Positions 29,851 through 32,503 of a DNA stretch of 64,000 nucleotides are shown here, in pieces; position 1 is the stretch's first letter, and every line of letters begins with the position of its first letter. Both the position numbers and the translations under genes were made by a program. The DNA is from Cyanobium sp. WAJ14-Wanaka. GTDB taxonomy: Bacteria; Cyanobacteriota; Cyanobacteriia; PCC-6307; Cyanobiaceae. The stretch lies in assembly GCF_024345375.1 (NCBI RefSeq), contig NZ_JAGQAZ010000001.1, positions 372,001 to 436,000 on the forward strand. Reading direction: 5' to 3'. The notes below the pieces were generated by a model. That model was not told the DNA's origin. It searched no databases and saw nothing but the letters and a program-made list of their open reading frames with translations.

Positions 29851-30819
29851 TCAGGCGAAGCGGATATCGAGGCTGCGCAGGTAGGTCATCAGGCCCGCAT
29901 CCTGGATGGGGAGGAGATAGGCAGTACTGCCGCTTTCATTCACATGGGCATGCCAGTGGCCAGGGGGAGTGATGAAGGCTCCTCCGGCCTGCCAATCGAT
30001 CCGCTTTGGATCCCGGATGGAGCCGTCGGCCTCCAGCTCCGTGCCCACCAGGGTGTAGCAGCCTGGCTCGCACTCGGTAATCAGATCTAGGGCCACCGAT
30101 TGGTGCCGGTGGGGGGCCTGGCTGGCGCCGGCAGGCACCATGCCAAACATCGCCCAGAGCACGTGCGTGACCGTGCGGGTGTTGGGCAGGTCGCTGTTGG
30201 CAAGCAGCAGGCTGAGGCGATTACTGCGGGCGCTGCTGAGATCGGCCGCCAGCTTGAGGAGCTCTTCCTTAAGCCAGGTACCGGGGTAATAGGTGGTCTC
30301 AAACCTGGGCAGGCTCGGCACCACGCCGAGGTAGTTGAGTAGGGGAGCGTCGTGCACCCAGTACAAAACGCTGGTGCTGTCTGCTTCCAGTAGGGGCGCC
30401 GCCCCCGCCGGCAGCACGAACAGATCACCCTGGTTCCAATTCAGGCACACAGGTTCGCTTTTGGCCTCACCGGGGCGTCCGCACCGACCACTGCCGGAGA
30501 GCACAAAGAACAGTGAGCTGGTGGCATTGGCGGCGGCTTTTACCGCCTCGCCGGCATCTAGACGGATGAAGTGGGCCGCTAACCCTGGACTGGTGGCCGG
30601 TCCAGCCGCACCAAGCTCGGCACTGAGATCGAGGGGCAGGATGGCGCTGGAGCCTGAAGCATGGAGCTCGGGCCCCCAGGAGTGGTAGGGGATTGGATCG
30701 CTCAGGCCCCGGCGCACCGGATTGGCGGCCTGGCGGTAATCGAACAGCAGCGCCTTGCTGTCATTGTTGGGGTGGATCGCTGCCGAACACACCATCGGAT
30801 GGGGACCAGGATCTGCCAT
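29851..30819 (-). CDS. Two-domain cupin protein
   Basis: A 322-residue protein with two beta-barrel cupin domains. The C-terminal one keeps likely metal ligands: APHRHQSVALDLIT near 235 and PPGHWHAHVN near 290. The N-terminal one (LFFVLSGSGRCGR and GDLFVLPAG) lacks a clear histidine pair. This is broadly like gentisate-dioxygenase-type bicupins, but no substrate can be assigned. Start at ATG 30819; a TTG at 30837 would overlap the sulfur-carrier gene by 3 to 4 bases. The neighbours are a CysO-like carrier and thrC on the same strand, suggesting a sulfur or amino-acid role (inference). Confidence 0.82.
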   Translation of the reverse strand: MADPGPHPMVCSAAIHPNNDSKALLFDYRQAANPVRRGLSDPIPYHSWGPELHASGSSAILPLDLSAELGAAGPATSPGLAAHFIRLDAGEAVKAAANATSSLFFVLSGSGRCGRPGEAKSEPVCLNWNQGDLFVLPAGAAPLLEADSTSVLYWVHDAPLLNYLGVVPSLPRFETTYYPGTWLKEELLKLAADLSSARSNRLSLLLANSDLPNTRTVTHVLWAMFGMVPAGASQAPHRHQSVALDLITECEPGCYTLVGTELEADGSIRDPKRIDWQAGGAFITPPGHWHAHVNESGSTAYLLPIQDAGLMTYLRSLDIRFA

Positions 30820-30833
30820 AGGAATTGGCTTCC

Positions 30834-31109
30834 TCAACCCCCAGCTACGGCGGGCACAATGCTCACCTCATCACCATCGGCCAGGGGGGTGGCCTGGTTA
30901 TCGAGGAAGCGGATGTCTTCGCTGTTTACATAGACATTCAGGAAGCGGCGCAGCTTGCCCGCCTCGTCACAGAGCCTGCCCTTGATGCCGGGGTATCGGG
31001 CCTCCAGGGCATCCAGCAGGGCGTCCACGCTGGTGGCCTCGAGTTCGGCGCTGGCCTCGTCGTTGGTGAACTTCTGGAGGGGGGTGGGGATCAGAACCTG
31101 AACGGCCAT
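30834..31109 (-). CDS. MoaD/ThiS-family sulfur carrier, CysO-like
   Basis: A 91-residue ubiquitin-fold protein ending in the diglycine tail PAVAGG, used for thiocarboxylate formation. [13 protein letters not shown] and [14 protein letters not shown] closely resemble the mycobacterial cysteine-synthesis carrier CysO as I remember it, more than MoaD or ThiS. It lies 54 bases downstream of thrC and just before the cupin gene. In Mycobacterium CysO works with CysM and the peptidase Mec; neither is in this window. An adenylating MoeB-like partner would be needed elsewhere. Confidence 0.88.
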
Positions 31110-31163
31110 TGGTTTTAGTTAGGGCGTAATTGGAGGCAGGTGGGGTCAATCAGCAGCTTGGTC

Positions 31164-32429
31164 CTAATGGCTTGCCTGGGCCTTCTGCCAGGCGGCCTTA
31201 AAGCTGTCGAGCTGGGCTTCGATTAGGTAGGGCTCACCAATGGAGCCGGCAATCGCTTCAGTGGTTTTGAGGCCGTTGCCGGTGATGTAGGCCACGGTGG
31301 TTTCATCGGGATTGATCTTGCCCTGTTCCACCAGCTTTTTCAGCACGGCAATAGTTGTGCCACCGGCTGTTTCGGTGAACACACCCTCGGTTTCGGCCAG
31401 CAACTTGATTCCTTCGATGATTTCGTCGTCGTTGACGGCGGCAATCGTGCCCTTGGTTTTATTGGCGATGTCGATGGCGTAGGGGCCGTCGGCGGGGTTG
31501 CCAATCGCAATCGACTTGGCGATGGTGTTGGGCTTCACCGGAGTGATGAAATCGCGGCCCTCGGCAAAGGCTTGGGCGATGGGGCTGCAGCCCTCGGCCT
31601 GGGCGCCGCTGAAGCGCACGGACTTCTCTTCCACCAGGCCCACCTTGATGAATTCATCAAAGCCCTTGCGGATTTTGGTGAACAGGGAGCCAGAAGCCAG
31701 GGGGGCCACGATGTGGTCAGGCAATTGCCAGCCCAGCTGCTCGATCACCTCATAGCCAAGGGTTTTGGAACCTTCGGAGTAGTAGGGACGCAGGTTGATA
31801 TTTACAAAGCCCCAGCCAAAGGTGTTGGCCACCTCTGAACAGAGGCGATTTACCTGGTCGTAGTTGCCATGCACCGCCATCAGAGTCGGGTTGTAAACCA
31901 GGGTGCCCAGCACCTTGCCCAGCTCCAGGTCGCTGGGGATAAACACACAGCACTCGAGGCCGGCGTGGGCGGCGATGGCAGCCGTGGAATTGGCCAGGTT
32001 GCCCGTGGATGCACAGCTCACCGTGGTGAAGCCCAGCTCCTTGGCGCGGGTGAGGGCCACCGAAACCACCCTGTCCTTGAAGGAGAGGGTGGGCATGTTT
32101 ACGCCGTCGTTTTTGATGTAAAGGCTTTTGAGGCCAAGGCGCTTGGCCAGGTTGTTGGCCTTCAGCAGGGGGGTAAAACCAGTGCCCACATCGATCGGAT
32201 CGCCCTCTATGGGCAGGAAATCCCTGTAGCGCCAGATCGATGCGGGGCCGGCTTCGATCGTGGCGCGGCTGACTCGATTTTTGATCGCCTCGTAGTCGTA
32301 GACGACCTCCAGGGGGCCAAAGCAGACGTCTTCACAGACGTGGCGGGCCGTTGCCTCGTAGGGATGGCCGCATTCCTTGCAGCGCAAGCCAGTGAAGGTG
32401 GAGCGAGAAAGGGTGGCTGTCACGGTCAC
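31164..32429 (-). CDS. thrC: Threonine synthase
   Basis: PLP enzyme converting O-phosphohomoserine to threonine. The 421-residue product has an N-terminal zinc-ribbon-like segment (LRCKECGHPYEATARHVCED), the PLP lysine in TLSFKDRVVSVAL near 113-125, the phosphate loop in ASTGNLANSTAAIAAH near 140-155, and the C-terminal ETAGGTTIAVLKKL. GTG start at 32429. It is divergent from the UPF0182 gene with 74 bases between. The CysO-like carrier and the cupin follow on the same strand. Confidence 0.95.
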   Translation of the reverse strand: MTVTATLSRSTFTGLRCKECGHPYEATARHVCEDVCFGPLEVVYDYEAIKNRVSRATIEAGPASIWRYRDFLPIEGDPIDVGTGFTPLLKANNLAKRLGLKSLYIKNDGVNMPTLSFKDRVVSVALTRAKELGFTTVSCASTGNLANSTAAIAAHAGLECCVFIPSDLELGKVLGTLVYNPTLMAVHGNYDQVNRLCSEVANTFGWGFVNINLRPYYSEGSKTLGYEVIEQLGWQLPDHIVAPLASGSLFTKIRKGFDEFIKVGLVEEKSVRFSGAQAEGCSPIAQAFAEGRDFITPVKPNTIAKSIAIGNPADGPYAIDIANKTKGTIAAVNDDEIIEGIKLLAETEGVFTETAGGTTIAVLKKLVEQGKINPDETTVAYITGNGLKTTEAIAGSIGEPYLIEAQLDSFKAAWQKAQASH

Positions 32430-32503
32430 GCCTAGCGATACCAGACCTTAACAGCGACTTTTGATCCGCCTGCTAAAAGCCGACCTTCGACATCGGGATT
32501 TAT

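What the first reader, a model, noticed from the sequence alone, without database searches (positions are those of the whole stretch)
29851..32429. thrC - CysO-like sulfur carrier - bicupin gene set
The carrier resembles the mycobacterial CysO that delivers thiocarboxylate sulfur for cysteine. Here it sits between threonine synthase and a metal-binding bicupin. Threonine synthase and CysM share the PLP fold type II, and O-phosphohomoserine resembles O-phosphoserine. A protein-thiocarboxylate route to homocysteine or cysteine, with the cupin as an oxygenase or sensor, is conceivable.
Basis: partly seen in the sequence, partly recalled or inferred. Interest (0 to 1): 0.5.

Follow-up and report, generated by a model that had tools for sequence, protein, structure and literature searches.

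The report
Cyanobacterial homocysteine-making gene pair (metM-metO)
A gene labelled threonine synthase and the small sulfur-carrier gene beside it are very probably a cyanobacterial copy of a recently described bacterial route to homocysteine, the precursor of methionine, which could explain how many cyanobacteria make methionine without the textbook enzymes.

Summary
The three genes are real. The carrier is a CysO-type sulfur carrier, not the genome's MoaD or ThiS. The genome also has one MoeB-rhodanese activator beside a Mec-type peptidase, and a second, canonical ThrC. The window "thrC" lacks canonical ThrC motifs and groups with an actinobacterial gene that has a SAM riboswitch upstream and a carrier gene downstream: the metM-metO arrangement reported for Streptomyces albulus (homocysteine from O-phosphohomoserine and a carrier thiocarboxylate).

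In 291 genomes of the phylum, enzyme and carrier occur in the same 109, adjacent in 103. In the window's family, the 5 genomes with the pair have no MetB/MetC/MetY-type enzyme; the 31 without it have three each. The window genome lacks MetX and MetA matches but has MetH.

The bicupin is a neighbour only in the Cyanobium-type lineage and is probably unrelated. New here: a conserved palindrome (CCGA-N9-TCGG) upstream of metM in most Cyanobacteriia tested, where no riboswitch was found.

The mechanism was published in 2024 and a cyanobacterial homologue discussed in 2025, so this is a new member of a known kind. Homocysteine formation is unproven in cyanobacteria; a DUF39 protein present in 108 of the 109 genomes is the main rival.

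The parts
31164..32429 (-). metM-like gene annotated as threonine synthase (thrC); PLP fold-type II enzyme proposed to make homocysteine from O-phosphohomoserine and carrier thiocarboxylate
   Evidence: one clade with the Nonomuraea gene that follows a SAM riboswitch, support 100/99 with a long-branch warning; motifs differ from canonical ThrC
30834..31109 (-). metO-like gene, CysO-type sulfur carrier ending in Gly-Gly
   Evidence: adjacent to metM in 103 of 109 genomes and 79 of 80 named loci
32480..32496 (.). core of a conserved inverted repeat CCGA-N9-TCGG, about 50 bases upstream of the metM start; candidate operator
   Evidence: 76 of 80 named own-family loci, rate in shuffles 0.0075; 35 of 40 other genomes, 24 of 28 families, rate in Markov controls 0.0035; window copy
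29851..30819 (-). bicupin gene, gentisate-dioxygenase-like; neighbour only in the Cyanobium-type lineage, probably not part of the system
   Evidence: neighbour in 5 of 5 own-family loci, 0 of 25 others (two of the 25 too short to tell); 71 of 80 named relatives

Best explanation
The pair is a cyanobacterial metM-metO operon for homocysteine synthesis. Proposed steps: (1) the genome's single MoeB-rhodanese E1 adenylates the C-terminal glycine of MetO and its rhodanese domain turns it into a thiocarboxylate (inferred); (2) MetM, a ThrC paralogue with a changed active site, binds O-phosphohomoserine, releases phosphate and adds the carrier's sulfur at the gamma carbon (inferred from homology and the published Streptomyces work); (3) the MetO-homocysteine adduct is cleaved by the Mec-type JAMM peptidase encoded beside the E1, as in the CysM/CysO/Mec route (inferred); (4) homocysteine is methylated by MetH. 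Shown here by sequence: presence of these parts, strict co-occurrence and adjacency of metM and metO, no match to the usual homocysteine enzymes in the window genome, and a conserved inverted repeat in front of metM where a regulator of methionine supply could bind.
For: Carrier is CysO-type and distinct from ThiS and MoaD. One E1 (MoeB-rhodanese) over the family cut-off, beside one JAB/Mec peptidase. A canonical ThrC is encoded elsewhere, so the window gene should not be needed for threonine. Enzyme and carrier in the same 109 of 291 genomes at my thresholds, 0 discordant; 103 adjacent, median gap between matches 143 bases. Window genome: no PF01053 match (MetB/MetC/MetY family) at E 1e-10, no MetX at 1e-30, no MetA at 0.1, MetH present. 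In family f1: 5 of 36 genomes have the pair and no PF01053; 31 of 36 lack the pair and have three PF01053 members each. 68 of all 109 pair-bearing genomes have no PF01053 at E 1e-10. A Nonomuraea orthologue (53.7% identical, one clade, support 100/99) has a SAM riboswitch (68.7 bits) ending 13 bases before its likely ATG and a 91-aa carrier gene 24 bases downstream. Passages of PMC12172450: in Microcystis the metO-like neighbour and thrC rise 6.8- and 10.5-fold with threonine, methionine reverses the thrC rise and relieves the toxicity, and this ThrC is 51.6% identical to S. albulus MetM.
Against: I know of no homocysteine assay with carrier thiocarboxylate for a cyanobacterial pair. The Microcystis orthologue made threonine from O-phosphohomoserine and deaminated threonine in vitro; with Na2S an unidentified peak near methionine was seen; [quoted passage not shown] A DUF39/HcyBio protein, another possible homocysteine route, is in the window genome and in 108 of 109 pair-bearing genomes. 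41 of 109 have a PF01053 match at E 1e-10 (35 below 1e-30), so the pair is not always the only candidate; one pair-bearing family member (G169) has a partial MetX-like match. The carriers do not mirror the enzymes: the window carrier is 47% identical to the Nonomuraea MetO and 51% to its CysO, and an unrooted tree of 9 carriers puts the Nonomuraea MetO on the side of the actinobacterial CysO proteins (100/100), apart from the cyanobacterial ones. The enzyme tree carries a long-branch warning. No SAM riboswitch was found in the cyanobacterial loci. The S. albulus proteins were not available for direct comparison.
Confidence: 0.73

Rival explanations
1. The window enzyme is simply a second threonine synthase/deaminase, and the carrier serves something else (for example a CysK-type enzyme or tRNA thiolation).
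For: TIGR00260 thrC match E 1.7e-98; the Microcystis orthologue was reported to have threonine synthase and threonine deaminase activity in vitro (PMC12172450).
Against: A canonical ThrC is already present. Changes at the motifs NSVNPYR to N(I/V)NLRPYY, GNAGN to ASGS and EPASA to ETAGG are shared with the Nonomuraea gene that follows a SAM riboswitch. At my thresholds enzyme and carrier never occur apart in 291 genomes.
Confidence: 0.12
2. Homocysteine in these cyanobacteria is made mainly by the DUF39/HcyBio protein from aspartate semialdehyde, and the pair has an accessory role.
For: PF01837 in the window genome (E 1.4e-54) and in 108 of 109 pair-bearing genomes; no match at E 1e-10 in the 31 family members that lack the pair.
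Against: PMC12068725 (passages) says archaeal L-ASST needs Cys54 and nearly always has Cys131. In the cyanobacterial sequences aligned no cysteine is conserved in the region around residue 54. The Cys of a DCYP motif is kept in the 10 best-scoring proteins aligned (and in G046) but lost in the 5 own-family ones. G112 has the pair and no DUF39 match. No archaeal sequence was aligned, and the NIL/ferredoxin and COG2122 partners were not tested.
Confidence: 0.16
3. The pair makes cysteine from O-phosphoserine, as CysM/CysO do in mycobacteria.
For: The carrier is about 50% identical to three CysO proteins; a Mec-type peptidase and MoeB-rhodanese are present.
Against: The enzyme is 18% identical to the Nonomuraea CysM against 33% to its own genome's ThrC; two CysK-type enzymes are present; the Nonomuraea orthologue follows a SAM riboswitch.
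Confidence: 0.05

Closest known systems
MetM/MetO of Streptomyces albulus (Hasebe et al. 2024, PMC11497804: not held, abstract recalled; described in passages of PMC12172450)
   Same: ThrC-like enzyme directly upstream of a sulfur-carrier gene; an actinobacterial orthologue (Nonomuraea, 53.7%) shows the same order
   Different: No SAM riboswitch found in the cyanobacterial loci; instead a conserved inverted repeat; activity in cyanobacteria unproven
Threonine-responsive thrC and neighbouring metO-like gene of Microcystis aeruginosa (PMC12172450)
   Same: Same two-gene neighbourhood in a cyanobacterium; the paper itself links it to MetM
   Different: Authors favour a threonine synthase/deaminase role; in the passages read they tried Na2S, not the carrier thiocarboxylate, as sulfur source
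CysM-CysO-Mec cysteine route of mycobacteria
   Same: Carrier of the same type (50% identity), Mec-type peptidase and MoeB-type activator in the genome
   Different: Partner enzyme is ThrC-like, not CysM-like; activator and peptidase lie elsewhere in the genome
Thiocarboxylate-dependent methionine route of Wolinella succinogenes (HcyS with MetY; recalled)
   Same: Homocysteine made with sulfur from a carrier thiocarboxylate
   Different: That route uses a MetY-type enzyme (PF01053), not found in the window genome

Membership tests
MetM/MetO | Enzyme related to MetM rather than to canonical ThrC | tested here: met
   53.7% identical to the Nonomuraea riboswitch-metM-metO gene against 34% to the genome's own ThrC; one clade, support 100/99, with a long-branch warning. 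Indirect: S. albulus MetM itself was not available.
MetM/MetO | Sulfur-carrier gene with C-terminal Gly-Gly next to the enzyme gene | tested here: met
   Window; 103 of 109 genomes; 79 of 80 named loci, the other ending at a contig edge
MetM/MetO | Carrier closer to MetO than to CysO | tested here: inconclusive
   47% to Nonomuraea MetO, 51% to Nonomuraea CysO; the tree separates cyanobacterial from actinobacterial carriers only
MetM/MetO | Activating E1 for the carrier in the genome | tested here: met
   One MoeB-rhodanese; that it acts on this carrier is inferred
MetM/MetO | Homocysteine from O-phosphohomoserine plus carrier thiocarboxylate | not testable with these tools
   Needs an enzyme assay; Microcystis data inconclusive
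MetM/MetO | SAM riboswitch upstream (a feature of the actinobacterial locus, not of the enzyme) | tested here: not met
   No SAM match in the window region, in 17 loci, 5 of them with long upstream DNA, or in 400 bases upstream in 40 further genomes; present in Nonomuraea. I treat it as regulation, not as defining.
Canonical threonine synthase | Canonical active-site and PLP-loop motifs | tested here: not met
   NPYR and GNAGN motifs replaced
Canonical threonine synthase | Threonine from O-phosphohomoserine | not testable with these tools
   Reported for the Microcystis orthologue
CysM/CysO | CysM-type partner beside the carrier | tested here: not met
   Partner is ThrC-like; 18% identical to Nonomuraea CysM
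MoaD or ThiS of the genome | Sole carrier, or within moa or thi genes | tested here: not met
   Separate ThiS (thiE neighbour) and MoaD (in a moa cluster) exist

The most novel reading that the evidence does not exclude
The metM-metO pair is the ancestral homocysteine route of Cyanobacteriia, controlled by an unidentified regulator through the palindrome, and the cyanobacterial DUF39 protein (without the conserved cysteine reported for the archaeal enzyme) is a working partner of it, for example in sulfur supply. Both were lost together when part of the Synechococcus/Prochlorococcus family took up PF01053 enzymes.
Probability: 0.2. Interest if true: 0.75.

Novelty: new member of a known kind. 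Interest (0 to 1): 0.5.

Why it matters
Of the pair-bearing cyanobacterial genomes sampled, 68 of 109 have no match to the MetB/MetC/MetY family, so textbook pathways do not explain their homocysteine. The pair gives a specific, testable answer, with DUF39 as the one rival seen, and would recast many cyanobacterial 'thrC' genes and the reported threonine toxicity in Microcystis as methionine metabolism. The conserved palindrome offers a handle on an unknown regulator.

Tried and rejected
Cysteine route: rejected as leading idea because the enzyme is not CysM-like. Bicupin as part of the system: rejected, clade-limited. Riboswitch in cyanobacteria: none found. The first scan held only 1-190 bases upstream of metM for 12 of its 17 loci, so I repeated it on 400 bases upstream in 40 genomes; it listed only a tRNA, an SRP RNA and a sub-threshold microRNA match. 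Conserved wider neighbourhood: neighbours beyond the pair differ between the 11 loci looked at. A consensus promoter scan gave nothing. Paper searches were seen as listings, often a capped part (20 of 45, 20 of 24, 15 of 152). The only paper noticed there on this pair in cyanobacteria was PMC12172450; none evidently named a regulator. No structure prediction was run. MetA was searched only in the window genome, and the E1 and Mec families likewise.

Rows dropped: G032 (E 2.5e-8, 34%), and six weak matches (36-41% identity), were left out of the 109. In one search the Nonomuraea enzyme was translated in the wrong frame and its tree is void; the identities cited do not involve that row. In one search two rows (Aeromonas, Azospirillum) were wrong reading frames; that enzyme tree is void and both rows were removed. 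IlvA, CysK, CysK-like and CysM rows were left out. MoaD and ThiS were left out of the second carrier tree. In one search two rows (L073, L077) picked a wrong protein; DUF39 statements for those loci rest. In one search one row (L070) was cut short by the script; one search shows that it has the DCYP motif. The 10 DUF39 proteins are the ten best-scoring, not a random sample; four DUF39 proteins from outside the class, from genomes without the pair, lack DCYP too. The 80 named loci are the best 80 of 564 confirmed relatives, hence close relatives by construction.

Full report
The observation. The window is part of a 2.14 Mb genome; the best matches to its enzyme in a named collection are Cyanobium and freshwater Synechococcus. 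The carrier is a ThiS-family protein whose best solved relatives are 3dwg_C (CysO) and 4n6e_B. One E1 protein is over the family cut-off, a MoeB-rhodanese fusion, encoded beside one JAB/Mec-type peptidase. PMC1779556 (passages) lists such an E1-rhodanese plus JAB pair as an uncharacterised operon that occurs in cyanobacteria.

The enzyme. Six fold-type II PLP enzymes were found: IlvA, a canonical ThrC, two CysK-type enzymes, TrpB and the window gene (assignments other than the two ThrC-type ones are my reading of length and motifs). The canonical ThrC matches a solved threonine synthase (2zsj) at E 7e-135; the window enzyme matches the same chain at 1e-57. The cyanobacterial orthologues and the Nonomuraea enzyme share motifs that differ from canonical ThrC: SFKDRVV, STGNLA, N(I/V)NLRPYY, ASGS and ETAGG. 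I read these as active-site and cofactor-loop positions from general knowledge of the family.

Who has it. I searched 291 genomes of the phylum (at least 90% complete requested). The carrier was found in 110 at E 1e-6 and the enzyme in 115 at E 1e-60. Leaving out one and six weak matches respectively, both sets are the same 109 genomes. Enzyme and carrier are neighbours on one strand in 103, with a median gap of 143 bases between the matches; in the other six they lie apart or on different contigs. Among 80 named loci, 79 have the carrier next to the enzyme and in the last the contig ends 123 bases on.

What they lack. The window genome has no PF01053 match (the family of MetB, MetC, MetY) at E 1e-10, no MetX at 1e-30 and no MetA at 0.1, but has MetH. 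In its family, 5 of 36 genomes carry the pair and none of these has a PF01053 match; the 31 without the pair have three PF01053 members each. One of the five, G169, has a partial MetX-like match. Over all 109 pair-bearing genomes, 68 have no PF01053 match at E 1e-10 and 74 none below 1e-30. So exclusion is complete in this family but not in the class.

The link to MetM/MetO. PMC12172450 (abstract, outline and passages) reports that the Microcystis thrC lies next to a metO-like gene and is 51.6% identical to MetM of S. albulus, a homocysteine synthase described by Hasebe et al. 2024. That paper is not held; from recall, MetM converts O-phosphohomoserine to homocysteine with sulfur from thiocarboxylated MetO. 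In a plasmid collection the best match to the window enzyme is in Nonomuraea gerenzanensis (53%). There a SAM riboswitch (RF00162, 68.7 bits) ends 13 bases before the likely ATG, and a 91-aa carrier gene follows 24 bases downstream. The same organism has a separate CysO-CysM set with a Mec-like ORF upstream. A tree of 14 enzymes puts the cyanobacterial and Nonomuraea enzymes on one side with support 100/99; the program warns that the Nonomuraea branch is long. The carriers do not show the same split: the Nonomuraea MetO falls with the actinobacterial CysO proteins, apart from the cyanobacterial carriers. Still, the riboswitch ties this gene type to methionine independently of the cyanobacterial data.

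A reading of published data. In Microcystis, threonine raised thrC 10.5-fold and the metO-like gene 6.8-fold, methionine reversed the thrC rise and relieved toxicity, and methionine and SAM fell. I infer that threonine starves the cell of O-phosphohomoserine and so of methionine. The authors instead propose threonine deamination, and report threonine synthase and deaminase activity in vitro; this counts against a pure MetM role.

The DUF39 rival. A DUF39/HcyBio protein is in the window genome and in 108 of 109 pair-bearing genomes, and has no match at E 1e-10 in the 31 family members that lack the pair. In methanogens and Desulfovibrio such proteins take part in making homocysteine from aspartate semialdehyde (PMC5764234, passages). 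PMC12068725 (passages) says that Cys54 is essential and Cys131 nearly universal in that enzyme. The cyanobacterial proteins I aligned have no conserved cysteine in the Cys54 region (the window's has one nearby, its family relatives do not). The own-family proteins have also lost the DCYP cysteine kept in the 10 best-scoring ones. I could not align an archaeal sequence, so the correspondence of positions is inferred. One genome (G112) has the pair without DUF39, and one (G046) has DUF39 without the pair or PF01053. The near-perfect co-occurrence is unexplained and may mean a shared pathway.

The bicupin. It follows the carrier in 5 of 5 own-family loci and 0 of 25 loci from other families, two of which were too short to tell. 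It is present in 71 of 80 named relatives; in 3 of the other 9 the contig ends, and in 6 (RCC307 and similar) it was not found within 3 kb. It is a lineage-specific neighbour.

A conserved operator-like repeat. Upstream of metM an inverted repeat CCGA-N9-TCGG occurs in 76 of 80 named loci, always with spacer 9 (7 to 11 allowed), against 0.75% in shuffles, and in the window at 32480-32496. I chose 40 of the 104 pair-bearing genomes outside the family (one for each of 28 families, plus 12). The exact core occurs in 35, covering 24 of 28 families, against 0.35% in order-1 Markov controls; of the five misses, G036 shows nothing alike. The core was not found in the fetched loci of metH, DUF39, the E1 or ThrC of the window genome. 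No SAM or other riboswitch was found in the window region, 17 loci, or 400 bases upstream in those 40 genomes. I take it as a candidate regulator site; the regulator is unknown to me.

Verdict. The pair is most likely a cyanobacterial MetM/MetO system. The kind is known and a cyanobacterial homologue was noted in print. What is added here is the strict pairing across the phylum sample, the replacement pattern in picocyanobacteria, the operator-like repeat and the DUF39 co-occurrence.

Noticed in passing
L067 (G000:C1:187407-188441): DUF39/HcyBio protein that co-occurs with metM-metO in 108 of 109 genomes but lacks conserved cysteines reported for the archaeal enzyme; function open.
   Followed up: partly
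window 32480-32496; L098-L177; L187-L226: Conserved inverted repeat CCGA-N9-TCGG upstream of metM across Cyanobacteriia; in most genomes outside the family the spacer is A/T-rich.
   Followed up: partly
G046 (L083): A genome with DUF39 but neither the pair nor a PF01053 match at the thresholds used: a possible methionine auxotroph or a test case for DUF39.
   Followed up: no
31 genomes of family f1: They have three PF01053 proteins but no MetX match at E 1e-30, so how they activate homoserine was not established here.
   Followed up: no
window 29851-30819: By eye only the C-terminal cupin half keeps the usual His ligands (HRH and a later His); the N-terminal half seems to have lost them (motif recalled).
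   Followed up: no
L126: A genome contigs record titled Bifidobacterium breve MAG carries a Cyanobium-type metM-metO-cupin locus; probably a mislabelled or mixed assembly.
   Followed up: no
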